Below, piece by piece: positions 8,576 through 55,700 of a stretch of 64,000 nt of DNA. A model generated the notes under the pieces. The model was given only the letters and a program-made list of their open reading frames with translations. It was not told the origin of the DNA and did not search any database. Every line of letters begins with the position of its first letter. Within the stretch, counting starts at the first letter, position 1. Source of the DNA: Xiphydria camelus (Eukaryota > Arthropoda > Insecta > Hymenoptera > Xiphydriidae); contig OY783200.1 in assembly GCA_963678675.1 (NCBI GenBank), positions 2,616,501 through 2,680,500 of the forward strand, given 5' to 3'. Made by a program: the position numbers and the translations under genes.

Positions 8576-8911
8576 TCATCAGAAAGAGGCCTCATCTCGT
8601 GTCCGTGTCAATGTGCTCCGCGTTACCGGAACTTGTTCGCGCGATCAGCCCAAAGGAAAAACCTCCAGTGTCGAACCTCTCAGCTTCGTCGTCTTCATCG
8701 ACGCATCACCAAGTGTGAAGTGAACCAGGCAGCCTCTCCATCGGTCCAGGACGACCAAACGCGTTTTCTTCTCAGAGATGATCGACCGTTCCTCAAATCC
8801 TCTCGAGCTAACCTCCGAAAGGTCGGAACCCCGAGGAAAGTATGCTGTCCCCCCGACAGCGAGATACACGTCGAGATACTGTCGCATCCTCCGGCGCGAC
8901 TATCCAAGAGC

Positions 8912-11900
8912 ATGACGACGAATCGCGTTAATTTCGACGCGTCGCGGTTCGATGATCGGAATAGCGATGGTCCCGGCAGTCTTCAGCTTCGCGATGAAGA
9001 TCCCGGCAGCGTCAAGGGTGTCCTGAAGAGGAGCTACGACGGGCACAACCTTCAGGACCCGCGGGACTCGCAGATCTGCCTGGATCTGAGGAAGAGTTAC
9101 TGTCATCTCGCCAGAAAGAACTTCTCCTGCAGGTGGGACGTCAGTGGTCACGCGCATCCTAGCTTCGTGACGTCTCGTCTCACGGGAAGCGTCAGACGAA
9201 TGAACGGAAGTGCGGAGAATTCTCGATTCACCGGCGAATTCGTTCCGCGTCTCGATGTCAACGGAAGTGAGAGGTTTTATCGGTCGAGCCCTTCGATCGC
9301 GCACAGCCTCAACGATTCCCAGGTGAATTCCCATCCGCAGAGGCAGCGGAGGTCGCCCAGGAAGAAGTCCAAGGCTGCCAAGTCGACTCCGCTCTTCATC
9401 GACAGACTGAAAAGCGACTTCCAGCAATTCCAGTCTTCCGACGTCTTCGTTTCTAAGCCTCGCTCCCGGAGAAATTGGTACCCCGAATTTTCGACGAGGT
9501 ACTTCCGCTCGGAGATCAATGACTCGAAGGATGTCGAGCCTTCGGAGACGCCGAAGAGGAGCTTCTCTATATTTGTTCCGGACAAGCCGAAAGTTTATTC
9601 GATAGGGTTGTCTTCCGGGGCGAGACCCATTGAATTAGACAAGCGCGAAGATATGGTTTCGAGGCTCGACGGGGCTATATGGAACCTGAAGAGGTGCTTG
9701 GAACTCGTGAGGCGGAGGACAATTTCCGAGACCCCGTCGAAGAGTCCTCGAAGTGCTGACGGTGCTTCTTCGTCGATATTGGACGATTCTTGTCGCGATA
9801 AACCTGCCGCGTCAGTTGATACAGGGCCTTCGATGTCATTCGGTGGGTCGAATGAAGATATCGGTCAAAATATCGGATTAATCGGTGAAGATTCTAACGA
9901 AATTAATAGGAGTCCCCGAAGACAGTCTAATTTGTATCGATCCATATGTCAGGATCGCGTTTCCTTGAACCGTAATGAGTCTAAATGTCAATCAGCTGGC
10001 ACTGACGATTTTGATATCCCGGAGAAAAATCATCGCAGAAGAGAGGCTCGTGAGAAGTTGACCATGAAGTCTTCCACGAGGACGGATGACAGACCTAATC
10101 ATGACTCTTTATTCCAAAAGTCGTTTAATGCCAATTTTTACAGCGAAAGTGACGTATGCAATGATAATTTAATTTCGCGAAATGAACAATTCATTCTGGG
10201 GGACAAACTTGAGAAGCCTTCGCAAGTTGTCGAAGAGGCAAAACTGCGCAAGGGAGCGGAACATTTTACATCCACCGAGAAGAGAATTCGGAGGAAGACA
10301 AGGAAGAGCGTCGTCGGTAGATTTATCACGGAAGATATTTCCGGAGGGAAGAATAATCGTGAAAAGCCCAAATCAACTAAATCAAAGCTTCTGCGATCAG
10401 ATTTAGACGATGGCTCCAGTGGGTGTTTCAGTGACTTCGAGGTTGGAGAGTCTAAAAGTGCTGTATTTGCGTCTTTGAAGAGGAAAATGATGAAGATATC
10501 GTTACGGCAAGAGTCTCTTAAAATTACGAGAAGAAATTCGAAACACAAAAGAAATCTAATTTCTTCATCTAAGCAGAGCGATGAAGGAGTTGGAAGTCAC
10601 TCGACAGCTTACAATAGATGTTCCAGAATTCACGAAAAAGTAGGAAAGAATAATCGTTCCTCTAAAATGTGCAAAAAGCATTCCAGAATTTTCCGGGAAA
10701 ACGCTACAATTTTTAGCGACGGCGGCTGTGTTTTCGACGACGAAGAGATCCCACGTAAAAATCGCTCATCGGCCAAATGCCTCACTGTGAAAGAGGTTCT
10801 TTTGGAAGATCGGGAGAAAGTCAATTTCATTCGTTCCGAATCGCTCTCGAAAAAGAGACTCAATGCTTCCTACAGCGGATTGGAAATCTATCGCAAGAAG
10901 AGACTCCCAGAAGGCAAATTAATCGAAACAGAAATTCTAGATGACATCAAAAGAAGAATAGACAGGGACATCGAGAAAACGTCGTCAGATTTTAATTTCG
11001 ATGAAGAAAGAGATTTCATCTCGTCGACTCCCGAGGCGGAGGTCTATACCAGAAGCTTATCCTGCGAACCTGAAGAGGGAGATGAAGTCCGAGACGATTC
11101 GGGTAAAAGCATCAGTACCGTAGAAGACGTCTCGCTGGACGTGGACCAACATTCCAGATCGATCCTCTCTTCCCTGAAGAAATTAGAGGACATCCTCCTC
11201 TTGGAAGATGAAAACTTGAAAGTTACACCATCTTGCGACGTCTTGATCGAAGACGACGAAATCTCCAGTGTAAATCACATCGACTCCAGCTCTTCTTCAA
11301 GACCTTTCTTAAGCGCAGACTCCATTTGTTCACAAACCAGCGGAAATATCTTCTTCGAGGATGAGAGAACTTGCGAAATATTCGAAAGATCGAACAATCG
11401 CGATGAAGGTAATTAAATATCAATTATTTTAATGTGTGCATACAAATTTTTGAAATTTTTAGAAATAATTTAAATCTATTATACCTACATTAATTACTAA
11501 TATATATATATATAATAAAATAAAATTAGATTTTTTTTATTAAATTCAATTTTTGTTTAAAATTTAATTATTTATATTGATATATACATATAAACAAATT
11601 ATAATAAATATAAATTAAAAATATAAAATAAAAGTAACATAAAATTTTAATAATTAATTAATCGGTATTAGAATTAGAAATATAAATAAATTTAGTAAAA
11701 ATTGTAATTAATTATAAAATTAATAATTAACAATCAATTAATTATAAAAAATAATAATTAATTCTGAGAGAATCTCTTCGAATGTTCGTCAAGGTGGAAA
11801 CACTATTTCAAGTTCACGAAAGGACCTCGTCAGCTCCTCTTTCGAAGATACACCCTCTTCGGGAAGGAAGACACGCAGGAAACAGGACATTTCCGATGAC

Positions 11901-19919: not shown

Positions 19920-20650
19920 TTTTTCATTTAAATTTGTCTGATTAGATCTAAATTCTCTGGAAGAGATTAGATCTATGTAGGCCTAATTTTAGATTTAAAT
20001 TTAGCTAATTAGATCTAAATTTTGGAACAGATTAGACCTATTATTAGATTTATGTAGATCTAATGATAGGTCTGCGCAGATCTAAAGTAATAATCTCAAT
20101 AGATCGGGCAAGAGCTTCGATTTAAGAGTGTCGTTTAAGTTTTTCAACTTGGGAAAAATATTTGAGATTTAAAATCATCTAATTAAATCTCATTCTGGAA
20201 GAGATTAGATCTGTGTAGATCCAACAATAGGCCTACGCAGATCTAAAGTAGTGATCTCAATAGATCTAATAAGAACTTGGAATTAAGAGTGTCGTTCAGC
20301 CCTTTTATTATGGGAATAATATTTCTGATTTGAATTGATCTAATTAGATGTAAATTTTGGAACAGATTAGATCTAGGTAGATCTGATGATAGGTATACGC
20401 AGATCTGAAGTTATGATCTCAATAGATCTGGTAAGATCTGTTTTGGATTAATGAATTCTACTTAGATCTATTAACGTAAAAATGATCGAATACAATATTA
20501 GATCAGATCTTGTAAACTCGACTTAGTTCTAACAAGATTTGCTTAGATTTCATTTAGAACGAATGGTCGAAAGAAATGTTAGATTTACTTAGATCTAATT
20601 TGTTCCAAAGAGCAGATCCAATTAGATCAAATTAGATTTAAAATATTTTT
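19920..20650. repeat. AGATCT-rich array with about 162-bp periodicity
   Basis: The six-base palindrome AGATCT and its variants (TTAGATCTAAT, TAGATCTA) recur dozens of times. A longer unit repeats about three times: CGCAGATCTAAAGT or a variant followed by ATCTCAATAGATC at about 20075, 20237 and 20399, each followed by a version of AAGAGTGTCGTT. After 20450 only the short motif remains. There is no coding capacity. Confidence 0.8.
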
Positions 20651-23290
20651 TCCACCGAAAAGTTCAGAGAATTTGGAGAACGAAAAGTAGCAGAAGGACA
20701 AATAAATAATTACACCAATTAAATGGGGCGTGAAATATTGTGCACTTTTTTGTGATAAATATGCGTGCAACATCCGATTCCAAAGTGCAGAAAGAAAGTG
20801 AATGCAAACTCAATAAATTATTGTTTGGAAAACCCGTCGTAATAAAAAATCGAACACCAAACTAATTACGCACAATAATGCGCAACAAATTCAGTTGCAA
20901 TGTTCTCACTCCAAGTGCGCGGAACCTTAAAATAAGAGGAAAAAATGAAACGCCTTTTCTAACGACATTCTACGGTCCAGAATTCTCTCTCCAAGTCCCC
21001 TACGATGATCACCTGTCCTCCGGGAGAGCGTCGAGTGGCGCGCGGAGCACTTTAAAAATTCTTGAGGGATATTTCTATAGAGACCTCCCCCCCCCCACCC
21101 ACCCACCCACCCCCGCCCGTCCCCCTTTCGAATTTTCGCCACTCCACGCTAAAATTCTATTTCGCCGGCGAATAGCAAAGCGAAGATGACAAAGTCGGGG
21201 AAAATTGAGAAACTGCTTCTTGTAGTGGCGGCGGGTGGCGCGACGGGGGCAGGATAGTGGCGTCCGGGATCTCGGAGAGACGCGCGTGGCAAAGCCCCGG
21301 GGACTAAGTAGATTCCCCGGTGCCTTTGTCGAGCGTTGCGACGCCGATCGGACGCGTCGCGCTCGCCCCCAGAAATGCAGCGGCAATCGAATTCCATGGT
21401 TTAACGAGAGGGGGCGACGGAGTCGGGGGGGAAATGAGGGGAAAAGGGGTGAGAAATTCTGAGTCGAAATAAATTAAGATTTTTTTTTTCCCCCGTGAAA
21501 AATGACTTTTACGAATGCCAATTTATAGTGATATTTTCTTTGAAAAAAAAAACGTGTTTCTCAAGATACTCACATTCTTCTTCTCTGCTGACATTTTGGA
21601 CAATTTTTTCCAGTAAAAAAATGTCCACCTGATAATTGTTCCTCGAACGAGACGCACGTAGACGATACGACGTGTCTGTAGGGATTTGTATTTTTCAAAA
21701 AAAAGAGGGGCGGAGGGGGAAGAGGCAGGAAAAAATGAACTACGTCCCGCGTACCTCCCTAGGGGGTGCGACGTAGGTACCTATCTCTTTATCCGAGCGG
21801 CACAAAGGTTTCGCGAAGATTACAGGACAGCCAATTCCTCCTCCCCGCGCAGATTCTATGGGGGTATTACGGCGACACGCAAAAGTAATATGTGGGACGA
21901 CGCGTCATCCCTGGACAATGCTCGCACGGCCCCGGGCCTCTCTTCGATACTTTATTAACCCCTAAACGCACCGCGCGGACAATCTTCGGAATACAGTCGG
22001 ACATTGGAAGCCTTTCTCGATGTTTAATCCTTATTTCAGTAAATAAAACTTTATAGAAAAAAAATAGAACTCAGATTATGAGAAATTATACTTGAATGTT
22101 TCAGTTAAAAATATTAGTACTATATAGTAAAGCTGAAACAGATTGATAATTTATCATTTTTAAGTGATCAATTTATAAAACATTTACGTAAACCTACTCG
22201 TTATATTAGTAGTGGGAAATGACGATTTCAATGTTATTATGTTAAATACTATAGCAAATTTTTAACTATTTGTTTAGTGAAAATTTACTTTATTTCGATT
22301 CTTCCTATTTTTATAGTAATATGTGGTGCGCAACGAGTATTTGCTGAGTAATACTTCGAATTTTTAACTACAGCAGTGTAGTTTTTACTTAGAACCGAGT
22401 CCCGTTTTTCTGTGTGTATTGCAGTTGATACGTACCTTCCAGCCCCTTAAAATGTTTCGTAAATAGCTCCAACTTTCGTTAAACAAAAATAACGATAGAT
22501 GTGAAAGAGAGAATATATGAGAATTTTCGGACTTATTTTAGAAAACTAAAATTAATTGGAAAAGGAAGAAGTGGTGAAAGGTAATATATAGTTTACCCCA
22601 TTGAATGTTGGGACATGTTTATTTTGCCAAATGAAATTTGCCGCATGTGCAATTATGGAAGGCGAATGTTTAGACGACTAATTTTTGAGTAATTAGCGAC
22701 TTATCTGCCGATTCTTAAATAGATTCTAATAGCTATACGTTTATTATCAGATCGATATGATACATTTATACATATAAAACCGACGCTTATGTAATGTTTG
22801 TTAAAGTGTACTTATTTGCAGTTTACTTTATCGAAATTATTGATTGTGAAACGAAACAGTGAAATGAGAGGAAAATCTCTTTGATATGCTGTATTTTGAG
22901 CTACATAATATAAGTATATCTGTCGGTTAATTATTTTTACATGAGCAGCAAAGCATTGGGACAATTGCTGCATATTTGTAAAAAAAAAACTGTTGGATCT
23001 TACATATCACTTGGAGCAAATTCGATTGTCCCGAGAACAATGAGTTTTCCGAATTGCTGCATAATTTTACGGATCACGGTATAAATTAATTATAATTACA
23101 GGTTTTCGTAGGGGGCAGTAGGTATCTATAGATATATTATTTATAACTATGCTACAATCGTTTTTACCTTTTAAAGGTTTTCTTTATAATAGAGCTTTCG
23201 TATAATGCCATCTCGGAACAATTCTTATCAACTAAAAGATTAAATTCTATCCTCTCAAATTCGCACATCTCTCGAGTTCGTCATTTTTGC
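20651..23290. other. Intergenic between the AGATCT array and the nerfin-1 3' end
   Basis: A C-rich simple repeat (CCCCCCACCCACCC type) lies at 21086-21117, within a GC-rich island at about 20990-21450. A smaller GC-rich patch is at 21680-21960. Positions 22000-23290 are AT-rich and unique-looking. I see no coding exon or RNA gene. The GC islands might be regulatory DNA for nerfin-1, but this is unproven. Confidence 0.4.
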
Positions 23291-23300
23291 TTCAAACTCG

Positions 23301-23306
23301 TTTATT
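23301..23306 (-). terminator. Putative nerfin-1 poly(A) signal
   Basis: TTTATT on the plus strand is AATAAA in the nerfin-1 sense. It lies about 110 nt beyond the most distal miR-279-type site and about 1.95 kb after the stop codon. Its position just past the site array makes it a sensible transcript end. Other signals further out cannot be excluded. Confidence 0.5.
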
Positions 23307-23415
23307 TCTACGTTCTTTGTTACCATTCGATGCCCTTTCCGGTTAGTAAAAACTAAGCGTCAACTAAATCTAAATCATACAATTGCATTCTTCCCGAAAT
23401 TGTGAGAAATGTTTC

Positions 23416-24596
23416 GACTAGAAATTTTTTCCACTGACTAGATATCTTTGATAATTTAGTGTTTCTTTGGGCATTATTTGACTAGAAAGTTTTTTTGCGA
23501 TTATCGCGGACTAGACTTTCATGACTCTTGAGAGAGAAGCAAATTAAAATTGCTGGTGTCCCCCACTATTGATGTATACTTTCATATCGTTATGTTATAC
23601 GAGAGAACTTTTTTTACAGACTAGAGATATTTTCTTATGACTTCTCGTGACTAGATTTGTTTTGAAAACCTCCAAAGTGACGTTAAAATTGCAAAAGTCC
23701 CTGTTTGCTTTCTACGACTATACGGTTGTTCCCTTATTTTAACTTAATCTAATTTTTGGTTTTTACAACGTGGACAAATTACCGGATACGTCATCCAATG
23801 CATGCGAATGCACAACTACCTTATTAAATAACTTTGACTAGATTCGGTTGATGTTAGATCAAACGTTTGCAGATACCACGAAACAAGGGAAAGTCGATGC
23901 TCGCCTTCGACAAGTTTAAAATGATTAAACTCTCGAGTTACTTCACTTTCCTTTGATTTGTCGTACCGGCGGAACTGCTTAACGCAATTGTACTTAAATT
24001 AATATTAATCATTACGATCTACTTTGGACTAGACGATACTCTTTCACTCTAAACTAGTAGAATGAAGAATAATGCAAAAATCAGGAATAACAGAACCAAC
24101 TGAAAATTACGCTATCAACGAAATGTAATATATAATAATAGGATGGCGGGAAAACGAGATCCGCTGACTAGAATTTGATTAAAAATTAAATGATAAAAAT
24201 TATTCGAATTCACAAAATTGAACGACCAGATTTTCTGACAAGGATCGACGCCTTAGACTATTATCTCTGCGACAATTAATCCTAAACATATACCTAATTA
24301 CAATTAATACTTTTGACTGTTCCGACTAGATAAAATTTCTGTTACGCAGATGCGTTTGACTAGAAGTACAAATATTTTCCCAGGGAAGAATCGTCGATTC
24401 GTCCCACAGAAATGACTAGAGACTTTTCGCCGAATTCAGCAAGGAGACTTTTGACTAGAATTTTATATTGCGATGACTAGATTATATCACGACTAGATCG
24501 TACACATTTCAAGTGACTTAATTATCTTTGATGCTTCAGCTGTATGACGACGGTCGTTGTCGAAATTACAAAGGACAATTATGGCTTACGACTAGA
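23416..24596 (-). promoter_or_regulatory. Array of 16 miR-279/996/286-family seed-match sites in the nerfin-1 3'UTR
   Basis: The plus strand carries GACTAGA starting at 23416, 23436, 23480, 23509, 23619, 23649, 23836, 24027, 24166, 24324, 24358, 24414, 24453, 24475, 24491 and 24590. In the minus-strand mRNA each is UCUAGUC, complementary to miRNA seed GACUAGA (nucleotides 2-8). Nine are preceded by T on the plus strand, making 8-mer sites (UCUAGUCA). The other seven are 7-mer-m8 sites. A given 7-mer is expected about 0.07 times in 1.2 kb of random sequence. Flanks differ between sites, so this is not a tandem duplication. Several neighbours are 16-44 nt apart, the range where miRNA sites act cooperatively. 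miR-279 regulation of nerfin-1 is known in Drosophila. Confidence 0.85.
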
Positions 24597-25257
24597 TGAT
24601 TCCAATTACATATACAGTTGATCGACATCCGAGAGATACGACTTGCGATTGCTCGATTCATTCTACACGACCCGACGCTTACTTGCTTCATCACTGACCT
24701 ACCTGCCACTCCCACCTGTATCAACTTTATTACATCTACGGACACTAAGAACTATACAGTTTACGATATATCATACAACATACTCCTTGGCCTTTCTCGA
24801 TTATGCACAAATTTACATGATTTTTTTTCCCTTTCCTATTTTCTACGATCCCAATTCATTGCTTTTCTTTTTCGATTGGAGTAATTATAGCGTTGCTTAT
24901 CGTTCCCCTGCCAATTTTCTCACATCTTGCTGTATCCCCCTATCAGTTCATCAGGTGTTCAGACGGTCATCAAAATTATTGCTGGAGCTTACGTTTAATC
25001 CGGTCCAATGAACGAAATCGCCTTAAACTTACATCGCCTAGTGAATTTTTGATTGTTTACTCACAATTTCCGAAAGCCAGCCCTTCACCTTTCGCGCCTG
25101 ACGCGCTCCGGCTGTCTTCTCTTCTTCATACGTGATATCGCGCGAAGTGATGCCGATGAGCCGGCAAAGTCGAGTCCCGTGGAAGCTACATGAGGTCAAG
25201 GCCGAATCTCCAGTAGAGGCCGGGTCGTCTGGGCAGCGGTCTAGCGGGAAATCGGTG

Positions 25258-26625
25258 TCAGGCCATCTCGCCGACGAGCGGAGCGGTGCCAAGGTGAACG
25301 TTGCCCGCCACCAGCGCCTTCCCCCCGATCTCGAGCACCCCGCTGTCCTCGGTTTCCGGATGTTGGCTGGCCACGTGCTTCCTGAGGGCGGCCTGCCTGG
25401 TGAACTTGGCGTCGCACCTGGCGCAGGATATCTCCGTGTTGGTGTTAACCGCAGCCGACGACCCGGCCTCGCCATTGGGTTGCCTCGGTTTGTGCCACCT
25501 TCTGTGCGAGGCCAGATTCGCCGGGCAGGAGAACCTCTTGTCGCACTCCGGGCAACGGTACTCCACGTGGGCTATCCTGGAGCACCTGTGCTGCGCCAGC
25601 TGAAAGGCGTCCTCGTGCAGGTGACGGCAGAGCTTGCACTGGTAGGGCCCGAGACGGTTTTCTATCTTGGCCAGCTCAGCCCGCGCCTCCTCGGTGACCT
25701 CGACGATGTTGAAAGCGGGATCGATGTCACCCGTGACCACGGCCTCGTCCGGGCCCAGGATGACCGTGCCGGAAACGGGGCTGCTGGTGTCCTCGTCGAA
25801 TTTCAGGCGTCTCGCGTGCTTCTTCTTGGGTCTCGGCGGTGGCGATGGCTTTTCCGCGAGCGGTACGACCGGTGCGGGCAGTTTGGGTGTCGACGACGGT
25901 GATCCGGAAGCGGTTTCCTCTTCTCTTGGTCGTTTTCTCGGGCACTGAGGCGGGGACGGTGTGCTGGGTGGGGTCATGGGCGCGTGGATCGTCTGCAGGT
26001 GATGCTGGGGTGTCAGCAAAAGCTGTTGGTGGTAGCTCTGGATGGACTGCAGGTGTGTGGGGCTGGCCAGTAGTAGCTTGTCGTCCGGTATGTGGTACTT
26101 TTGGGTGGTCTCGGCGTTCGGGTAGAGCGGTTGACCCGATTCGGGACGGGCGTGCGGCTCCTTCGTGGCTTCGTCGCGTTCCTTTTGCAGCGGCAGCTGG
26201 TGCTCGTAGTCGTGGCGGGCTGGAAGGGGTCCGCGCGGCAAGGTGGTCGGTTCGACGGTGTCGTCGAGCGCGTCCTCGTCATCGCGGAGATACCTCTGCG
26301 CGTCCAGTCGCCGTTGGAGCTCTTCTCGGTGTCGCCGATCTTCCTCGTCGTCCACCTCGATGGCCTCCTCGGTCTTTGGTGTGCTCGGGGTCGGCGGCGG
26401 CTTCAGGGACAGGTCCAAGGGGCAGGGCGTGACCGAGCGAGCGGACTGCCAGGCGGGGAAGACTTGTTGATGATGATGATGATGATGCTCGATCCTCGAG
26501 TAGTGGTCTTCGAGGGGGATGTAGCTTGTCGTTGAGTAAGGGTGAGCCATGTCCTCGCCGTAATAGCCGCCGAGGTAACTCAGGCCCGGGGCCAGGAAGG
26601 CCCTCGGCAAGGTGCTGTGCAGCAT
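25258..26625 (-). CDS. nerfin-1: Nerfin-1, insulinoma-associated (INSM)-type zinc-finger transcription factor
   Basis: Intronless frame of 455 codons, with ATG at 26625 and stop TGA at 25258-25260. In Drosophila nerfin-1 is a transient regulator in newborn neurons that controls axon guidance and prevents dedifferentiation. The zinc fingers are near the C-terminus. Finger 1 starts YQCKLCRHLHEDAFQLAQH (about 330-353), finger 2 is CPECDKRFSCPANLASHRRW (358-378) and finger 3 is CARCDAKFTRQAALRKH (401-422). Finger 2 and its HKPR tail are the hallmark of the INSM/nerfin family. PLDLS at 69-73 is a CtBP-binding motif, and the N-terminus has PRAFL, reminiscent of the SNAG repressor motif of INSM1. 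Six histidines lie at 47-52. Length is close to that of the fly protein. The long 3'UTR carries the miR-279-type array, and the GC-rich sequence upstream (26630-27200) is the probable promoter. Confidence 0.93.
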   Translation of the reverse strand: MLHSTLPRAFLAPGLSYLGGYYGEDMAHPYSTTSYIPLEDHYSRIEHHHHHHQQVFPAWQSARSVTPCPLDLSLKPPPTPSTPKTEEAIEVDDEEDRRHREELQRRLDAQRYLRDDEDALDDTVEPTTLPRGPLPARHDYEHQLPLQKERDEATKEPHARPESGQPLYPNAETTQKYHIPDDKLLLASPTHLQSIQSYHQQLLLTPQHHLQTIHAPMTPPSTPSPPQCPRKRPREEETASGSPSSTPKLPAPVVPLAEKPSPPPRPKKKHARRLKFDEDTSSPVSGTVILGPDEAVVTGDIDPAFNIVEVTEEARAELAKIENRLGPYQCKLCRHLHEDAFQLAQHRCSRIAHVEYRCPECDKRFSCPANLASHRRWHKPRQPNGEAGSSAAVNTNTEISCARCDAKFTRQAALRKHVASQHPETEDSGVLEIGGKALVAGNVHLGTAPLVGEMA

Positions 26626-36872: not shown

Positions 36873-39800
36873 TTAATAACTTATTCTCGACAGCACTTCA
36901 AGACAAAATCGCAAGGTCGATTCAAGCGTAAAATCGTATCTTCGAAATATCGACGTGCTTCGCTTCTCAGGAAAAATGAAATTATCACTCGCGCACAAAT
37001 ATGATTGGTCTCTCTCATTATTGCCGCACGTTCTGCGCTTTGCTCAAATCAAAACAGTCTTTTTCGCTTGGATTGGTCGCCCTCGACCTTCGCGCGTTTA
37101 TTCGTCGTTGGCGTCACGCCCGAGCGAGCTTTCCTCTTGCGCGACTGAAGGACACGTGTCAATTAATTCCCATTTCGCCCACACAACTCGCTTCGTAAAA
37201 ATCGAACGGCATCGAGAAACCGCGTGAAATAAGCAGAATTGACTCACCCTGTTGCCGGGCGTTCGGCTGCTTCCGGCCTGCTCGCTTTCATCGTTCGTCT
37301 CGTCGATTTCGGTGGCGGGACTCAGATGCGCGAAGACGAAGTTCCTGTTGTTCTTCGGCCCCAGAATGGTGGTCTCTTTGTTCTGCTGCACTATCAGCGC
37401 CAGCCGCGCCAGGGATTCTTCACCCCTGGCGAGGAAGGAACTCCGCTGTATCGCGCTCTAGGATACAAAAAAAACCACTCAAGTTGTAATTATGAATCTT
37501 TACAGTGAGAAGAAGATTCGGTAAAATCAACTAACCACATTCAGTTGAATATAGCTGATATTAAATATTTTATCAGATCAAATAATATTCATTCGCCTCG
37601 ATAAAATATTTGCTTGGTTTAACGAAATACATTTATTAAGAAAATATGTTAAGCTAAAACACTATTTTGTCAAGACAAATTAATGTTATTTGAGCTGATA
37701 AGATATTTAGTTGCGACTATTTAACTAAATATTTAGTTGATCTTACCGTCGAAATACCGACATTTATTAAGAAATTATATTAAGCTAAAAAAATATTTGG
37801 TCAGAAGAGCTAATAAAAAATTTCATTGTGATTATTCAACCCGTTTTGTTGATTTTACCGAATTTTTATTCAAGTGTAGATTTTCAATAGCAATTGCCGC
37901 GAGGAAAATATTTTGATTTACCTTCAATACGAACGATTTCGTTGTGGTAGTACTGGGGCTGTCTAAGAGTTCTGATACCGTGCGAGGCATGATAGATTGT
38001 GCTGATTTGTTTGCTACATTTGCCGTTTCTTGGCTCTGACTACTTTTGCTCTTCTTCAACGCTTTCATCCCTAATTTGAAGATCTGGCTGTTTCCCAGAT
38101 CGTTTTCCAAATCGTCGTTCGCGGAACTTTCCTTCTGGAAGAAGAGTTGGAAGAAACGAATTAAGCTCGATTTATTTTAACGGATTCGTTTAAACTACCT
38201 CTTTTTCCTGCAAAAACTTCTCCCTCTCGTGCCTCAATTTCCGCCATTCCAATTCACTCTCCTCTTCCTGCAGATCAGCCGAGGCGTCGTCTCCGTTCAT
38301 TGCGTCAGAATTATCGTAATTGTCGTCTTCGCCTAAACTGTCTGCAAGCGAAGAATGACTTGGTTCGGTTTCATGTTCGTTATTTTTATCACCGTTTCGT
38401 AAGTCGTCCCGTCGCAAAATCAGATTATTACAGAAAGTATGGAGAAGTGTTTTTCTCGTCTTGAAAAATCGTCGATCTTTTTTTGCAGCAGCAATTCTTT
38501 CTACATTTATTTCAATGCAATATTAAATAAATACTGATTCTCTTCTATCTCGTTTTAAGTTCATTCATTTTTACATCATTGGCTAAATTTAATGTACCTA
38601 GTGGTTAATTTTTTTCTAGGAATATAAAAATCGTTTAAATTTTAAGAACAATTTCTTCACCATTAAAAAATATCTTGACCCAAATTAGAGAATGAACTGA
38701 AGAAAATAAATGCATTTGAAGAATTATAGTTACATCAATTTTATCGTTCTCTGGAAAGTATCTCGAAACAAAAAGCAATCCATTTTTTTGACGAGACGAC
38801 GCAATCCTCGAACGGAAAAATCACCTATATTCCTCCACTTGAATTTCCTCTGGCGCCCAGCACCGTCGGAATACAAGTCGCCCTCCTCGAAGAGCATTTC
38901 CTTCAGCATCCTGACGTCCCTCTGATCCTGATCCAAAACCTGCCTCATGTGCATCTTGCCCAATTCCTTCCTCATCCGATTCTCGTCGATATCGTCCGCG
39001 TCTCCCTCCTCGATTTCGAGATTATCCAAATCCTTCTCGTCCTCGTCAGCGGAGCCCCATTCGCTCTCGCTCAGCTCGGCTTCGGCCTCGAGGAAATTAG
39101 CGGCTACCTTCCTGATGTCCTTCTTGGGGACGACGACGATTTCGTTCTCCTCCGAGTCGTAATCCACGAACTTCTCCTCTTCCTCTTCTTCGATCTCGCT
39201 CTCCACTTCGGATAAATCCTCCTCGTTGCTCTCGTCGTCGGACATCTCCAACTTCTTCACCTTCCTCTTCAATTTCTTCTTTTTCTTCATTCCTTCCTCC
39301 GCTTTTCTCGACATTTCTTCCTCGTCCGAAGACAAAACTTTGTAAGAAGTCCAAGGAGCGCTCTTCGTCCCCTCCTTTTCACTCTTCTCACCCAGCATCT
39401 TATCAGGCGATCGCGAACTCTCATCCAGAGTCAATCTCATGTCTTGCGACGTCTCGTTCTCGACTTCGGCGTCCGTTTTTCTCGCTTCTTCCTGCGAATC
39501 GAAGCCCCCCGAGCACAAGTTCATCAACTGAGTGTCGGAAACGTTCCTCCCGGAGGATCTTCCCACCAACTCGACGAGTCCCTCATTTTTATTCTGCGTT
39601 CTCGTGAATTTTCCCGAGCACAGCTCCAGCAAATCGTCCTCGTCCACCGTCGTCTCGTTATCTTCGAATAATTTCTTCTGGAAACTCTGCGATTTCTTTT
39701 CGCACGGAGTCTCTTCCATCGAGAGCGATTCCTCCCTCCTCTGCGGCGAGAAGTCCTCCTTCGACGCGCTCTTCTTCACCGAATCCAGGTGCGAATTCAA

Positions 39801-42800
39801 GGCGGTCAACTGGGTGATCGGCGAGATGAAGCTCAGGGTGTTCGTCGAGACTGACGGGGTTTTGCACGCCTGACTCCTCGCGTCCACATTTTGAGCATTT
39901 TGTTGGTAAACGGGGGGAAGGTCTTCGTCGACGTCGCTCAACCACGTGTCGTTGCTGTTCGTCTCGAACATGTCGACGTCTGTTTTCGTTCGCGGGAAAC
40001 TGGATTTCTTGTCGTTCTTCGCCGCTTCTTCTTCGGACGGCTTCGTCTCCTCGTCGCCGTCGTTCGAATCGTCCTCGAAAGCCTTCACGATTCTCTTCAG
40101 CTTTCTCGGTTCGTCTTCTATCGCCTCTTCATCTTCTTCTTCATCTTCCTCTTCATCCTCTTCTTCATCTTCGTCGTCTTCTTCCTCCTCGTCGTCGTCA
40201 TCTTTCGGATTTTTCTCCGCGCCGAGCACCTCGCTGTATTCCGCCTCTTCGTCGTACTCTTCAGCATCCTCTTCAGCTTCCTCAGTCTCGCTGACTTCCG
40301 CCTCATCGTTGAAGAACGCGCTTTCAACTCGCTTCGTCTCTCGCATCGGCACGTCGTTCTCTTCAGGTTCGCTCTCTCCGCTTTCGCTCAGCTCTTCTTC
40401 GTCTCCTCCTTCTTCCCCGTCGTCCAATCCACAAGTGCTTCTTTCTTCCTCAAACTCTTCTTCATTCGTCTCTTCCGCCTCCTTACGCCTCTGCTCCCAT
40501 TCCGCGTTGCGCTTCGTGGCAATCTTCTGCTTCAGCTCCTCCTGCAGTCGCAAGAACTTCGCCCCGGGTTTTTTCAATTCGGGATCCTCGTCTTCGTTTA
40601 CCGGCGGTGTATACGGAAGCGTCTGCTGCACGATCTTCACGCCGTGCGGTGTCGCTTCCGTGTGAATCACGGTGACCTCGCTGTTCTCCGTCGACTTGCC
40701 CTTCACCGAGTGCCGCATGAATCGGTCCATCAGATTTTTCACGCCCTCCTTGCTGGGCTTCGCGTCTTCGGAGAGGTCGATCACCATGCCCGGAAGTCCC
40801 CTCAATTTTGGCATCTCGTTGGTGACCAACGGCAGTAACTTCTTCTTGACGCTCTTCGGCTTTTCCAGCACATCGTCGTCGTCGTCGTCGAACACCGGCG
40901 GCGGTAGGAAGACCAGTTTACCAATCGATGGCTCTTCCTCTTCGTTAGCTTCGTCGATCGGCTCTAAATTTTCGGAGGTAGTCTTACTCTTCTCGCGAGG
41001 CTTAACAGTCTCTTTGCTGCTCATGCAGGGTGTTACGCAGATCTCCGCATTTTCCGATTGGCTGGTCTTTTCTGTATCGGAGGGATTTTCCAGATCTTCG
41101 GATATCTTCAGGACAAAGTCCTCCGTGTCGTTATCCGGGGGCGAGGTCTCTTTGGTCGTTTCGTTCTTCTCTTCGCCTTCGTCGATTTCACTTCGCAAGG
41201 CTTCGATCAAGCTGTCGATGGTTTCCGGTTGAACGTTGTTTTCGTTTCGATTCTCGATGCTCGTAGACTCGTCGTTCGTTTGCGTAGGGACGTCTTCATT
41301 CCTCGGATCGACTTCCATTTTTTCCTGGAAATCGTCGCCGAACAATTTTCTCGGGACGCTGGCCTCCCTCAAGCCGTCTTTGCGTTCCTTCGGCTTCCTC
41401 GGATGATCTTCCATATTCTCGCATGTTTCCAGTCCCATCGATTCGTCCATTTCCGTTGTCGAAGGCGTTTCTTCCCCTTCGTTTTCATCAGCGTCAATGG
41501 TGAACAGCTTCCTGGGAACTCCGAGATCCTTGACGCCTTGCTTGATGACTTCCTTCTTGTTGCGAGCGTTTTGCACGTTGCCGTCGTTCGCCTTCTGGGT
41601 TTCCGTGATCTCGGTGTCTTTAGCGGCAGGTTCTTCGAGTTTGCTGGCTTCCTCGAGATCGACGTCCGGATTCGCTGGAGTTTCTTGCGCCTGCGACGCG
41701 GTCTTCGGAATAGTCTCGTCCTCGGAATCGGATGATTTGTAAAAGAGCTCCGCTTCTCTTTCTTTCTCTTCCAAGACTTTGCTGTTGTTTCCGGCGAAGA
41801 CGATGCAGTCGCATTTAAAGACGAGAAAGTAAAAGATATCGTGGAACTTGTAGCGGCAATTTTCGGTAGCATAAATGGTCGATAGACCTACTGGTTTTTT
41901 GCTATTGTTGGTTTATTTTATTACGGGACAATTTGTATGTTTGACTCTTTTCTTTTGATCGTTTCAAATCTTACTTTTTCAAGTGCTTCTTTCAGTAAAA
42001 AATTGAATTTATGTAAGTAATTATTGATAAACATAAGTATACACCTTTATTGTTGAATATAAACCTATTTGATTAATTCGCCTCATAATTATTAAAAAAT
42101 TAATAATTCGCTCGTGTAAAACTTACAAAAATCAAAATACGACTTTTTCATTACTACGATTAAGTAATAGATTTAACGATCGCATTTTTTTTATATAAAA
42201 ATTATTAAATAGTGATTTTTTCGATAATTTAATTCGTGCACTCACCTCACGATTTCCGAAGACATTTTGACTTTGGCCGCGGTGGATACCGCTTTGGGAA
42301 GAACTGGTCCTATTTTTCTCCGATTGAAGAAATCCTGGAGTGTGCGCTGCTTCGGTCTATGATAAGGAAGAGATATTTCCGTCTCCCTGAGGAGACGCTG
42401 ACTTTCGCTGCGTATTTGACGCATCGCTTCGTCTTTCGAAGCCCTAATAGATCCCTAAAAAAACAATGATCATCATTGACAAAGCCTTGGGAAGGACCAA
42501 AACCGATCTCGCGCCTATTTAACTGGGTAATTATATTAAAAAAAGAGCTGCTATTATCAGTCGTAACATTTCTAATGATAAACTTGGCTAATGACGAAAA
42601 ATCCAATGACTCAACTTGAAAAACTTCATCATCAATCAGGTCATCAAAATCTCCCCTCAATTCCATTATTATTTCTTCCTCAAATTTCTAACGTCTACTA
42701 TTCATATAAAGCTTTCATAAGACTTAAGAGTAATTTTTTTTACATTTCTGACGAAAATGTTGGTTAATGACGAGAAATCTATTGATTCAGGGTGAGAAAT

Positions 42801-45901: not shown

Positions 45902-48900
45902 ATGGCGAATCGGACGGTGAAGGACGCGAAGTCGATACGCGGCACGAATCCTCAGTATTTAGTGGAGAAGATCATTCGATCTCGCGTGTACGACTCGAAA
46001 TACTGGAAGGAGGAATGCTTCGCGTTAACCGCGGAGTTGCTCGTCGACAAGGCGATGGAATTGCGGTGAGCTAACCTCGAATATCTTCGCGACCAAATGT
46101 ACCTTTCACAATTTGTAATTCGTACAATTCGGCGTGTCGCTCGACGCTTATTTTCTTATTAGACACTGAAAGTAAGCGTCGAGCGTCATCATAAATTTGT
46201 ATCTCAATTTCGATTCCCCGCTTCGCCGGAGAAGTCTGAAAATTCGCTAAAAATCGTTGATTTTGCAACGAGAAGTGGATTTTCTCCGGGAATGTCGAGC
46301 TTTTTTTTTACATAACGTCGTTGAAGATGCAATAGCTCGTAACCCACAGTTGCCAAAACGAGATTTGGACGTCATAAGACTTGCGGTATATTTGTTTACG
46401 CGTATATGCAAAATCTCAGTTTTATAATAAATCCGGTATTTTAAAAATAATAAGCCTCGTATCCCACACACATAAATGCAATACCACCTAAGCCACGAAT
46501 TTATTCCACTGCTGTGGGTTACAAGTTATTGCATCTTCAAAAACGATAAATTTCGTGCTTTCGTCTTGTTGCAGATTCGTCGGCGGAGTTTTTGGGGGCA
46601 ACGTGAAGCCGACGCCGTTTCTTTGCCTCATCCTGAAGATGTTGCAAATTCAGCCGGAAAAAGACATAATCGTCGAGTTCATAAAGAACGAGGAGTTCAA
46701 ATACGTCCGCGCACTGGGCGCACTGTACATGAGACTGACGGGCACGTCACTGGATTGCTACAAATATCTCGAGCCGCTCTTTAACGACAATAGAAAGCTG
46801 CGAAGGCAGAATCGGCAGGGACAATTCGAAGTGATTCACGTCGACGAATTCATAGACGAACTCCTCCGCGAGGAGCGGAGTTGTGATGTTATATTGCCGA
46901 GGATACAAAAACGTCACGTCCTGGAAGAAAACAATGAATTGGGTGAATATGAGATTGGTTTCTTTATCATTATAATTTATTTTGAATCTAGCCTATATAA
47001 CATTTAATTCTTTGAACATTTATTCATTTAATGATATACTACTTATTATTAATTGAAGCTATGTATGACCTTTCAATTCTTTGGTGACTTATTTATGTGA
47101 TTATTTACTGTATATATTTGAAACTGAACCTATGAAATATTTTATTCTTCAAATAGCTATTTTTTAACCCTTTTAGTGCCGGACGACGATATATCGTCGT
47201 TCGCTCAGGACCGATATTGGTTTTTTTATTAAAAATGATTGAAAATGTAATACTTATACTTCATACTACGTGACTTACATAAAACTATTATCAAACGATG
47301 ATTATTGTTATGAGCAAATATTGTGTGTAGAAGAGAAACTTGTTTATGTTTTTCATCGTGTTTAATATTTATGTTATTCGTATGATTTTCAATATATATT
47401 GAAATACAATTGACACTACATTGTTCTCTCTTTTTTCTGTAATACACTGCATTTTGAATTTTTCAAATATCATTCTTAGTTTGGTTTTTATGAGCTTTTT
47501 ACTAACCTCAGTAAATTCGTCAAATTCCTCCAGTTATCTTCGCATAAACACTCGGTTTTCGCTCGGCACTAAAAGGGTTATTTATATGTATACATACATT
47601 CGCTATGTATTTTTTAACTGAAACTGTATGAACATTGATTCTTTGAACACCTCTTTATTTCATTATATATTTACTATTTATTTTGAAACTATATATAATG
47701 GTATAAATATTTTACTCTGATTCTTTTTTCCTTATTCGATTATTTACTATGTATTTTGAAATAAGTTTATGAAACATTTTATTATTGAAATATTTATGCA
47801 TTTGATTACATGTATACATATATTTATTATTTATATTAAAGGTATAAGATCATTCGATTTTTCAAATATCTGTTTATTTTATTATATATTTACAATTTAT
47901 TTTTAAGTGACACTACGAACATTCAACTTTTATAACACATTCGTTTTATTATTTACTATTTTTTTTTGAAGGAATTATGTACCTATGAATATTCAATTCT
48001 TTGAAGACCTATTTATTTGATTCTTGCTATTTATTTTAGAAAGAAAATTGCAAAGCATTTGATTTCGTAAATACCTACTTATTTGATTATATGTATACAT
48101 GTATTCACTATTATTTATTTTCAACTGAAACTGTATGAACACTCGATTTATTGACCTGTTTATTTATGTGTTTACTATTCATTTTAAACTGAAACTATGA
48201 ATGCTCATTTATTTGAAAATTTATTTCTTTACTTTGTATTTATTTATTTATTTTCAATTAAGACTACAGGAATATTTAATTCTTAGAACACCTATTTGTA
48301 AATAGGTACCTATAATTGCTGTGTCTTTAAACTAAAACTATGAAAATTCAATTTTTTGAACATATATAATATCTATTTTAAAGTAAAAGTATCAATATTA
48401 AATTCTTTGAACACTTATTCCTTTGATAATTTATTACTGATTTTATATTGAAGCTATGAACATTATATTCTTTGAGCGCCTATTTATTTGTTTATTTATT
48501 TATTTTAAAGTTAAATTTTAATATTTTTAATTGAAATTATGGTTATCCGTAGGCATGCTTTACTAATCGAAATTAATAATGTGGAGGTGGTTTCATTTCT
48601 CTGCAATTTTTCTCCCATAACCGAATTATTTCCTTTGTTTACATTTTAATATATGTAATGAGATCATAAATATCATGGTATTTTTTTTGAAGGTGCCTTA
48701 ACGAATTTACAGTTCTTTAAATCAGCGAGAAAAAGTATAAAGAATGGGTTCATTGATTCCAGAGATTTCAATTGTTTCGAAAATTCCAAGGGGCACACTA
48801 AAAGATTTTGCCAGAATTCGGAATTTTTGGTATCCATCATTTGACTCTTCCTTTTGACTCTCAAAGAATACCAAGATATCGATGATTTTCTGTGAGACGG

Positions 48901-52710: not shown

Positions 52711-55700
52711 TTAAAACGTCGGAGAGTTCAAAATAAATAATCTCTCTTCTTCCTTCTTGATCCACTTCAGGAGCTTGCTAACCGCGAGTATGGCGTCGGC
52801 CTTCGTCACCAGAGGCTCGAACGTCACGTACAATTCGAAGCCCGTGGTCACCTGCGAGAAAACCAATCGTTAGCTTTCTTTTTCTCTGATTGATTAATCC
52901 AAAATAGAGTTTTCGACACTGTTAAAAGGATTTGTAAATTGGCTATACATTTTTTTATAAAAAATACAAAAGTATACGCTATAATAAAATATATTATAGT
53001 GTATTTATCTTTTCTATTTATAAATGGAAATAATATCGATTAATGAATATTCAAAAATTTTTAACAGGAACAAATAATCATGAATTATAAATAATGATTT
53101 CATTAGTCATAAATTATAGATAATAAATCAATCATTTAATGAAAATAATATCGGTTAATGGTTATTCAATTATTTAATAGGAATAAATCATTAATTATAA
53201 ATTAATGATTTCATTAATAATAAATATGCTTTTGTCATACAAAAGTATTATAAAATTGAAAGCCAAGCGCAATAATGTGAATCATTATGAATTTTTTTGT
53301 GATTTTCGAAAATAGTTTTGAATTTACAGTTTTTGCTGGAAACGTATCAATTCTGGTACATTTCGAATGGTTTTGTGGTAAATTTAATTGTTTCAATCGC
53401 GTATAGTGATTTTAATGGATAAACTTATATGATAAAAACTTGATGAAAGTAACACGAAGTTTACTACAAAAACTTTTCACAGTGTAGAAGAGATCTGCTC
53501 ACTCACCCACGCGAGCATGCTCTCCTTATCCAGTTGCTGGAATATTAATTTCAACGGCCGACTGGGTGCGTGCAGTCTGTGATGCAGGCACTGATAAAGC
53601 CCCAGCAATCTGAAATCGACGCGAAATTCCTCTCGTGATGAACGAATCCCTGAAAACACCAGAAACGCGAAAATAAACAGCTTTCGTCTCAAATCACCGC
53701 TCGATCTCCTCGTCCGTCGTGTAAGGCGACTGGAAGCTGGGGCTCCAGAACTGCGCGGTGCTGCGGCACTTGTAGAGGACGTGACGCATTTCCGGCAGGC
53801 CGATCTCGGCCGTCGTGACCGACGCTTTGTTCATCGACTTGTTGATCTCCTCCAGACAATTCGTCCGGCGCAATTTCTCGACGATTTTCTGTCGAAGATG
53901 AATCGCGTTGTCAGTCCCCCTCCGCGAGAGAATCTTCGCGCATGTCTTCGGTTTCCTCGTACGCACCTGCTTCGCTTCCGACAGCGTGAAGAACACGTCT
54001 CTGTCGACCGTCAGGAGCAACAGACACGCCTGGCAGTCCTCGGCCAAGTAGGAGACGTGACCGTGCATAAATCCGTTGGCGTCGAATTTCGGCAGGCAAA
54101 TCGGCGTCCAACTCTCCGCCGTTTTGAACGACTCCGAGCTGTCCACCAGATTCTGTATCAGATGCAAGTCCGCCGGGTGTATGAAGTACTTCTTCATCCT
54201 GACCAGCGTCACCAACTGGTTGTTGGCCAGCAGTATCGCGAACACGAGGTTCTGAAAGCGCGCGGAAAACAGCGCGAGATCAGCCGGGGAAATTGTCTTC
54301 AATTTTCTCCTCCCGCGGTTTTTTCCCCCACCTTGATTTTACCGCAAGTCTGAACGATGGTCTGCGTGATGGAGTCCCTCGTCGAGGGCAACAGGGGCAG
54401 ACACTTGACGGCGCCTAAAAAGAACGCCGGCTCCCGGTCCATAAAATTCAACAAGTGATCTATCAGTCTTTCGCTGCCGGTCAGCAGTCTCCTCAAATCG
54501 AAGTTTCGCCTCTGATCGTAAACCCTCGTCAGCTGCGACTGCGTTAAGACGGAGAGGATTTGATTATATACATATCTGGAAAAGCACAGAAACTTTCAGT
54601 GTTCCTCCGTTCGAATCGAAGACAGTTTTGTCGCGGCTCGCGTGTCCCGTGTCAGGTGTCCTACGTACGTGAGTTGAAGTACGAGTTGAGGTACGCTCTC
54701 CAGGGTTTTGGAAACCGAGACCATGATCAGCGGTCCCTTCAGCACGAACACGAAATTCGTGTCGCCCGCGTGCACGGATCTGATCATGTCGTTGCTCGTT
54801 TGAACGAAGGACACCAGAGCCTGCATCACCCCCATTACGGTGACGAGTTTGTCTTCCGAACTGTGCCTCGAGTAGATGGGCTTTCCGGCTTGGCTCAGAA
54901 CGAAGATGTGCTTCCGCTGAGCGAGCCACGCTTTGTTTCGCAGGGGATCCGCGTCCAGGCTGGTTTGGCTGAATCTGTGGGTCGCTTCGTCCTGATAATG
55001 TTAGGGAAACGGTTGATAATTTGTTGGCGATCCTTCGTTTACCGGAAAAATTGTTTATATATAATCACATATGATTATATGTAAACTTTTTTTCCCTGGG
55101 AGTTTTCTTGTGGCGCGTTCTTTTGAAAGTATTTACATAATTCGGGACGATTTTTTTTGACTCTTCGTTTGTTCTTCGCGAGAATTTAAGAGTAAATAGT
55201 GATAGCTCCTGACGAAACCAGTTTATCTTTTAGTATTTTGTTAAAACGTCTTATCTTATCAAAGCAGCTTATTTGTACATTCTGTAATTTTCAGAAGAGC
55301 TTAGAGAAACATCGTTAAAGGGCTATAATAGCGTTTTAGAATCATTGTACAAATATGAAATCTATTTTTGAAAGCGAATCTCAATTCTGTGGTGCATTAT
55401 GAAAATTCCAAGCACAGATATAGCTCTTAAAACGAAGTAACGGATGATGAAATTCGTAATTTCAAAAATATATGGCCTTGAAACGTTGACCTTTCTATCT
55501 GAAAGATATGTCATCTCAATATTCTAAATGAATATTGCATTCTACCAACTGAAAAAAACCGATGATTACTTATTTGTATTTTCTGTAATTTTCAGGAGAG
55601 CTTAGAGAAACATCGTTAAAGGGCCATAATAGCGTTTTAGAGTCATTGTACAAATATGAAATCTATTTTTGAAAGCGAATCTCAATTCTGTGGTGCATTA

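What the first reader, a model, noticed from the sequence alone, without database searches (positions are those of the whole stretch)
23416..24596. Sixteen miR-279-family seed sites packed into the nerfin-1 3'UTR
Seen: GACTAGA occurs 16 times in 1,181 bp on the plus strand, 660-1,840 nt downstream of the nerfin-1 stop. Nine are full 8-mer sites and seven are 7-mer-m8 sites. I noticed no other GACTAGA in the window. Orientation is right: the minus-strand mRNA reads UCUAGUC, the complement of seed GACUAGA (miR-279/996/286). Known: miR-279 represses nerfin-1 in Drosophila to shape olfactory neuron fate. Inference: flanking sequences are unrelated, so the sites were gained or kept individually. 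The UTR could act as a highly cooperative switch, or titrate the miRNA like a built-in sponge. Spacings of 16-44 nt between several neighbours favour cooperativity.
Basis: partly seen in the sequence, partly recalled or inferred. Interest (0 to 1): 0.9.

Follow-up and report, generated by a model that had tools for sequence, protein, structure and literature searches.

The report
Sixteen miR-279 sites in nerfin-1 tail
In an unnamed insect of the bee, wasp and ant order, the messenger tail of the neuron-fate gene nerfin-1 carries sixteen landing sites for one small regulatory RNA family, the densest such cluster seen in scans of its genome, and a second, smaller cluster lies about 88 kb away on the same strand.

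Summary
In detail: GACTAGA occurs 16 times in 23416-24596, in one orientation only, and nowhere else in the window. The gene is a Hymenoptera nerfin-1/INSM orthologue; the sites lie 662-1842 nt after its stop. Identity among sites is confined to the 7-nt seed match plus a mild A opposite position 1; no hairpins, no tandem repeat, no 3' supplementary pairing. The same genome encodes the matching miRNAs: two mir-279 hairpins (one just under Rfam's cut-off) and mir-996. Close-pair scans of the 357-Mb genome make this array the clear maximum and revealed a second array outside the window: 9 sites, 8 of them 8-mers, 87.5 kb away, same strand, no coding gene recognised around it. miR-279 control of nerfin-1 with many scattered sites is known in flies (PMC1183519), so the relation is not new; the dose, the rank in the genome and the linked array are. 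The spacing argument for cooperativity is not supported (P=0.10-0.15). Most likely a high-avidity miR-279/996 off-switch; sponging is possible, unproven.

The parts
25258..26625 (-). nerfin-1 (INSM family, C2H2 zinc finger) coding sequence, one open frame from ATG to TGA, 455 aa
   Evidence: ORF; Pfam zf-C2H2; first 33 relatives at 57-65% identity; termini align with nine Hymenoptera proteins; only full-length match in the genome. (Searches used 25258-26622, i.e. without the initial Met.)
23285..25257 (-). inferred nerfin-1 3'UTR (distal end assumed just after the AATAAA at 23306-23301)
   Evidence: no RNA data; sequence inference
23416..24596 (-). array of 16 miR-279/996 seed sites (mRNA TCTAGTC)
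24590..24596 (-). site 1 (nt 662 after stop), 7mer-m8
24491..24497 (-). site 2, 7mer-m8
24475..24481 (-). site 3, 8mer
24453..24459 (-). site 4, 8mer
24414..24420 (-). site 5, 8mer
24358..24364 (-). site 6, 8mer
24324..24330 (-). site 7, 7mer-m8
24166..24172 (-). site 8, 8mer
24027..24033 (-). site 9, 7mer-m8
23836..23842 (-). site 10, 8mer
23649..23655 (-). site 11, 8mer
23619..23625 (-). site 12, 7mer-m8
23509..23515 (-). site 13, 7mer-m8
23480..23486 (-). site 14, 8mer
23436..23442 (-). site 15, 8mer
23416..23422 (-). site 16 (nt 1836 after stop), 7mer-m8
24726..24731 (-). AATAAA, possible proximal poly(A) signal before every site, G-rich downstream (weak: such hexamers are expected by chance)
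23301..23306 (-). AATAAA, possible distal poly(A) signal about 110 nt after the last site (weak)

Best explanation
The array is a functional, selection-maintained set of miR-279/996-family target sites in the nerfin-1 3'UTR of a hymenopteran insect. Shown: site number, strand bias, identity limited to the seed match, and presence of the cognate miRNA genes in the same genome. Inferred: in cells that express miR-279/996, several Argonaute-miRNA complexes bind one transcript by seed pairing, recruit GW182 and CCR4-NOT, and remove the message quickly. Nerfin-1 would then be all but absent outside its short window in newborn neurons, even at low miRNA levels. Sixteen sites act mainly as avidity and redundancy: occupancy of at least one or a few sites is almost certain. 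Nothing here requires precisely spaced cooperativity.
For: 16 against 0.03-0.15 expected. 16:0 strand bias, unlike a typical double-stranded DNA element. Information content is full over 7 nt and low outside, except A opposite position 1 (9 of 16, P=0.033) and an A excess 4-7 nt upstream. Sites are slightly more accessible than 560 GC-matched 7-mers (median unpaired 0.140 against 0.088, one-sided P=0.045). Of 51 other insect seeds (recalled) none is comparably repeated; the next are miR-929 with 5 weaker matches, 4 of them overlapping miR-279 sites, and miR-315 with 3. mir-279 x2 and mir-996 hairpins in the genome. Genome-wide close-pair scans: of 65 pairs at 9-39 nt, 8 fall in this array and 5 in the second array; no other place has more than 2. 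Fly literature (passages): nerfin-1 is the top-scoring single-miRNA target of the PicTar fly predictions, with many non-aligned miR-286/279 sites (PMC1183519); massive derepression in mir-279/996 mutant heads (PMC4456407); nerfin-1 UTR reporter half-life 31 min with miR-279, dependent on CCR4-NOT (PMC3510486).
Against: No RNA or CLIP data: transcript end, expression and Argonaute binding are unseen. No comparison with relatives was possible, so selection is inferred from over-representation alone. No sites in the first 661 nt of the UTR. No 3' supplementary pairing and no better duplex energy than control flanks; this does not argue against seed sites but adds nothing. In reporter work (PMC6014984, passages) target sets of different miRNAs in one 3'UTR did not add up, so 16 sites may be well past saturation.
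Confidence: 0.85

Rival explanations
1. Alternative polyadenylation gate: a proximal AATAAA (24731) lies before all sites and a distal one (23306) after all of them, so the short form would escape miR-279 completely and the long form would carry all 16 sites. This is an added layer on the best explanation, not an exclusive rival.
For: All 16 sites lie between the two hexamers; absence of sites from the first 661 nt has P=0.0013 and from the first 527 nt P=0.006 under uniform placement; the sequence after the proximal hexamer is G-rich.
Against: 2.8 AATAAA are expected by chance in this UTR, so the hexamers carry no weight alone; more AATAAA follow at 22745 and 22623; no transcript data.
Confidence: 0.2
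2. Built-in sponge: the long UTR (and the second array) soaks up miR-279/996 and so relieves its other targets.
For: 16 sites in one transcript plus 9 in a linked array; seed-only pairing, which is not expected to trigger slicing (established knowledge).
Against: Needs very abundant transcript relative to miRNA, untested; in flies nerfin-1 itself is strongly repressed (PMC4456407), the opposite of a stable decoy; array 1 sits behind a coding sequence.
Confidence: 0.08
3. Not miRNA sites but binding sites for an RNA-binding protein with a UCUAGUC-like motif.
For: Strand bias fits any RNA-level factor.
Against: The 7-mer is exactly the miR-279 positions 2-8 match, with A opposite position 1 in 9 of 16 and 8 of 9 sites of the two arrays, and nothing looser: 2 one-mismatch neighbours against 1.2 expected. 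Protein motifs are usually degenerate. I know of no such protein, but did not search for one.
Confidence: 0.03
4. Clustered transcription-factor sites (enhancer), or a tandem or dispersed repeat, or a cluster of miR-279-like hairpins on the + strand.
For: A dispersed repeat bounded by GACTAGA does exist in this genome (18 of the 65 pair hits).
Against: One orientation only; no tandem array there; no similarity of array 1 to that repeat by eye; no hairpins (z between -1.5 and 2.0 against mononucleotide shuffles) and no mir-279 model hit in the region.
Confidence: 0.02

Closest known systems
Drosophila nerfin-1 3'UTR as miR-279/286/996 target (passages of PMC1183519, PMC1180435, PMC4456407; Kuzin et al. 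2007 seen only in a reference list)
   Same: Same gene, same seed, several to many sites, many of them non-aligned between species ('scattered' sites); strong repression shown in flies.
   Different: 16 seed sites in 1.18 kb here. The fly passages give 3 predicted sites (MovingTargets) or 2 anchor sites plus 'many additional' (PicTar), without a total. Different insect order, and a second linked array.
Tribolium nerfin-1, a predicted miR-279 target (PMC6961396, passages)
   Same: Conserved target relation outside flies.
   Different: No site number in the passages seen; no array described there.
let-7/HMGA2-type multi-site targets and the CDR1as (miR-7) sponge (recalled, not looked up)
   Same: Many sites for one miRNA in one transcript.
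   Different: HMGA2 has fewer sites; CDR1as is a circular non-coding RNA, whereas array 1 sits behind a coding sequence. Array 2 might be closer to a decoy, untested.

Membership tests
miR-279/996-family seed target (3'UTR) | 7mer-m8 or 8mer match to GACUAGA in sense orientation of the mRNA | tested here: met
   16 sites
miR-279/996-family seed target (3'UTR) | cognate miRNA encoded in the same genome | tested here: met
   RF00754 at C22 (68.2 bits, above cut-off 56) and C24 (52.7 bits, below cut-off, E=2.4e-9; its mature arm has the 21 nt of the Culex miR-279-3p mimic in PMC8507342); RF00948 mir-996 5.5 kb from the C24 copy (43.2 bits, cut-off 40.3)
miR-279/996-family seed target (3'UTR) | over-representation beyond chance, restricted to the seed | tested here: met
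miR-279/996-family seed target (3'UTR) | A opposite miRNA position 1 enriched | tested here: met
   9 of 16, P=0.033, weak alone; 8 of 9 in array 2
miR-279/996-family seed target (3'UTR) | sites lie in the mature mRNA | tested here: inconclusive
   downstream of a verified stop; poly(A) signals not above chance
miR-279/996-family seed target (3'UTR) | conserved in relatives | not testable with these tools
   no insect genome other than the window's own; viral-contig scan for nerfin-1 found no relative
miR-279/996-family seed target (3'UTR) | Argonaute occupancy and repression | not testable with these tools
   repression shown for the fly gene only
Cooperatively spaced target pairs | excess of 8-46 or 13-35 nt neighbour spacings | tested here: not met
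   P=0.15 and 0.10 against random placement
miRNA sponge or decoy | many sites for one miRNA on one RNA | tested here: inconclusive
   16 and 9 sites in the DNA; that each set lies on one RNA is not shown
miRNA sponge or decoy | non-coding, or stable under miRNA binding, and abundant | tested here: inconclusive
   array 1 lies behind a coding sequence; around array 2 no coding gene was recognised, with 2580001-2606500 unread; stability and abundance not testable
mir-279 hairpin gene cluster | foldback precursor around each seed | tested here: not met
Tandem or dispersed repeat | repeated flanks | tested here: not met
   (best pair of flanks of 20 nt or more: 25 nt at 84%)

The most novel reading that the evidence does not exclude
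A miR-279 control domain in cis: nerfin-1 mRNA carries 16 sites, and a separate same-strand, apparently non-coding RNA 87.5 kb downstream carries 9 (8 of them 8-mers). The second RNA would act as a local miR-279/996 decoy that sets the threshold above which nerfin-1 is shut off. Two arrays for the same seed without overall sequence similarity, the only two of this size seen in a 357-Mb genome by close-pair scans, lie within 90 kb (chance about 5e-4).
Probability: 0.1. Interest if true: 0.85.

Novelty: new variant of a known kind. Interest (0 to 1): 0.6.

Why it matters
Most miRNA targets have one or two sites and are tuned modestly (general knowledge). A natural transcript with 16 seed-only sites for one miRNA family, in a gene whose miR-279 control is genetically established in flies, is a test bench for how repression scales with site number, for site turnover (gene-level constraint with little position-level constraint), and for whether extreme arrays act as switches or as sponges. 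The linked second array gives a directly testable candidate for a decoy or co-target.

Tried and rejected
Rejected: cooperativity from spacing; miRNA gene cluster on the + strand (around array 2 one of 18 folds reached z=-2.8, with no Rfam hit); tandem or dispersed repeat origin; 3' supplementary pairing with miR-279c/d (mean longest run 3.3-3.4 nt against 3.3 background); decay halo of near-miss sites (2 against 1.2 expected); array 2 as a duplicate of array 1 (the two best blastn stretches, 24 nt at 92% with E=4e-4 and 37 nt at 81% with E=0.02, both hold seed matches; a shared origin of single sites is not excluded); array 2 as the 3'UTR of a rhomboid gene (none of 9 Rhomboid matches on C28). 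Poly(A) hexamers as evidence of transcript end: no better than chance.

Led nowhere: viral-contig scan (29 pattern matches, none a relative); Rfam on the window (0 hits) and around array 2 (0 hits); 20 ORFs near array 2 against Pfam (three hits at E 0.066-0.087, all under the curated cut-offs); Kuzin et al. 2007 is not held. The hexamer coding scan is rough: 4 of its 11 training pieces were out of frame (34, 18, 7 and 8 stops). It still recovered the zinc-finger frames at 2532-2543 kb (scores up to 221) and on the minus strand between 2544 and 2580 kb found nothing above 19.4. 2580001-2606500 was never read, so a distant coding part of the array-2 gene remains possible.

Full report
Observation. 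The window holds exactly 16 GACTAGA, all on the + strand, between 23416 and 24596, and none in reverse. On the minus strand this is TCTAGTC, the perfect match to miRNA positions 2-8 of the miR-279/996/286 family. Nine sites have A opposite position 1 (8-mers); seven do not. On the mRNA strand every CTAGTC and every TCTAGT within 23300-25257 belongs to a full 7-mer. The over-representation is beyond doubt: 0.05-0.15 expected from dinucleotides and 0.03 from the density in 250 kb of the same genome (12 background sites on both strands, after setting aside the two arrays and three miRNA seeds; the stretches were partly chosen near the miRNA genes and the arrays, 8 of 19 were arbitrary). In sliding 1.19-kb windows of the + strand the only other 7-mers among the 40 top rows (13 or more copies) are homopolymers and TTTATTT types.

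Gene. The minus-strand frame 26625-25258 encodes a 455-aa C2H2 zinc-finger protein. A protein search gave 1861 matches, of which 120 were listed. Every listed row with an organism name down to P0076 is, by my knowledge of the genera, from Hymenoptera; the first 33 rows have 57-65% identity. The names given are mixed: several are insulinoma-associated or egl-46, others are hypothetical, 'homeobox', 'myb-like' or other automatic labels. An alignment with 11 relatives shows both termini in register with the nine Hymenoptera proteins (the two beetle proteins end earlier), so the stop at 25260-25258 is the true end. It is the only full-length match in the genome; two others reach 30-34% over less than 80 residues. 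That the insect insulinoma-associated protein is nerfin-1 is established knowledge. The host is therefore a hymenopteran; no tool named its species.

Anatomy of the sites. Across the 16 sites identity is complete for seven positions and drops at once, apart from A at the position-1 neighbour and a mild A excess 4-7 nt upstream (12 of 16 A at -7). There is no supplementary pairing to hymenopteran miR-279c/d (sequences from PMC6835379, passages seen), no foldback and no mir-279 covariance hit (the only weak Rfam match in 22000-26000 is an unrelated snoRNA at E=2.6), and no repeat structure beyond short pairs such as one 25-nt flank pair at 84%. Sites are slightly more open than GC-matched 7-mers (one-sided P=0.045). 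Near-miss sites are not in excess (2 against 1.2). This is what independent gain and retention of seed-only sites would leave.

The miRNA is there. The window's own genome (G000, 357 Mb, 38 contigs; window = C28:2616501-2680500) contains a mir-279 hairpin at C24:12528985-12529068, whose mature arm has the 21 nt of the miR-279-3p mimic printed for Culex (PMC8507342, one passage). A mir-996 lies 5.5 kb downstream on the same strand (C24:12534575-12534639), and a second mir-279 copy at C22:9607113-9607200 on the minus strand. The C24 mir-279 copy scores 52.7 bits, under Rfam's cut-off of 56, but with E=2.4e-9 and a clear hairpin. Expression of miR-279c/d in bumblebee heads is reported in PMC6835379 (passages). 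A full Rfam scan of the genome did not complete, so there may be more copies.

Genome-wide rank. A scan for three GACTAGA with gaps of 5-35 nt gave 5 hits (reversed-pattern control 0): two inside the nerfin-1 array, two short visible repeats on C6 and C21, and one at C28:2552280. Pairs with gaps of 9-39 nt: 65 hits (control 59), of which 8 in the nerfin-1 array, 5 near C28:2552280, 18 copies of one dispersed repeat, and no other place with more than two. Pairs at 40-70 nt: 28 hits (control 79), 4 in the nerfin-1 array, 1 in the second. Outside the two C28 arrays close pairs are no more common than the reversed-pattern control (52 against 59, 23 against 79). Evenly scattered sites more than 70 nt apart would be missed by these scans, and the tool calls its counts lower bounds.

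A second array. Around C28:2552280 there are 9 GACTAGA in 3.1 kb (2549289-2552375), all in the same orientation as at nerfin-1, none reversed, 8 of 9 with A opposite position 1. Expected 0.07 from the background density, 0.14 from dinucleotides. It is not a copy of array 1 as a whole; the two best matching stretches (24 and 37 nt) hold seed matches. It lies 87.5 kb from array 1, outside the window. On the minus strand the next genes downstream are C2H2 zinc-finger frames at 2532-2543.6 kb, recognised by eye and not run against Pfam. Upstream, to 2580 kb, neither 20 open frames tested against Pfam nor a rough coding scan gave a convincing exon. It is thus either the far 3' end of a gene with distant or small coding exons (2580001-2606500 was not read) or a non-coding RNA; transcription itself is not shown. 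That the only two large arrays sit within 90 kb of each other has a chance of about 5e-4. I have no explanation that I would call established; co-regulated neighbours or a cis-linked decoy are the candidates.

Mechanism. Shown: sites, orientation, seed-limited identity, cognate miRNA genes. From work in flies (passages seen): miR-279 and miR-996 repress nerfin-1 in vivo (PMC4456407), and a nerfin-1 3'UTR reporter is degraded through CCR4-NOT with a half-life of 31 min when miR-279 is present (PMC3510486). Inferred: the same happens here with higher avidity. Sixteen sites make occupancy nearly certain and make the gene robust to loss of single sites, which fits the report of many non-aligned sites in fly nerfin-1 (PMC1183519). 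The array begins only 662 nt after the stop (P=0.0013 for none earlier) and an AATAAA precedes all sites, so a short isoform could escape; but such hexamers are expected by chance, so this stays a hypothesis.

Compared with what is known. nerfin-1 as the top-scoring multi-site miR-286/279 target was published for flies in 2005 (PMC1183519), listed with 3 sites in another prediction (PMC1180435), and target conservation in Tribolium is reported (PMC6961396). In my ten searches (open-licence PMC papers only; the listings of 29, 30 and 119 were cut at 20 of 63, 30 of 105 and 12 of 1,823) and in the passages read I saw no report of a 16-site array, of hymenopteran nerfin-1 sites, or of a linked second array. 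Kuzin et al. 2007, the main fly paper on nerfin-1 and microRNAs, could not be read. The finding is a strong variant of a known target relation, not a new kind of system.

Noticed in passing
L022:9289-9756 and L023:1880-2375 (G000:C28:2549289-2552375, 64 kb left of the window): Second same-strand array of 9 GACTAGA (8 with A opposite position 1), no coding gene recognised around it; candidate non-coding co-target or decoy of miR-279/996.
   Followed up: partly
L001:1451-1534, L004:5541-5605, L002:1486-1573: mir-279 and mir-996 hairpins 5.5 kb apart on contig C24 and a second mir-279 copy on C22.
   Followed up: yes
G000, 18 places listed (e.g. C6:10183621-10183673): A dispersed repeat of about 49-53 bp bounded by GACTAGA at both ends (GACTAGATACAATATAT...GACTAGA).
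   Followed up: no
L001:1792-1887: Nearly perfect palindrome that scores below cut-off on the mir-1263 model on both strands; looks like a mobile inverted-repeat element near mir-279.
   Followed up: no
window 20043-20436: 2.4 copies of a 161-bp tandem repeat rich in AGATCTA.
   Followed up: no
window 23443-23459 and 24523-24539: Short duplicated motif TATCTTTGAT in the nerfin-1 UTR, once directly beside a miR-279 site.
   Followed up: no
window 23464-23470: One 7-nt match (CCAAAGA) to the recalled miR-9 seed in the UTR; miR-9 also controls nerfin-1 in flies (PMC12064045, passage).
   Followed up: no
window 46492-47007 (+) and 53694-54338 (-): Open frames with a PRP38-family match and with the second longin domain of FUZ/MON1/HPS1.
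   Followed up: no
window 8576-11416 (+) and 38730-41912 (-): Long open frames of 946 and 1060 aa without Pfam match; the second is very acidic and resembles claspin by eye (recalled, untested).
   Followed up: no
G000:C10:33386808-33386924 (-): Three GACTAGA within 117 nt, another small group seen by combining.
   Followed up: no
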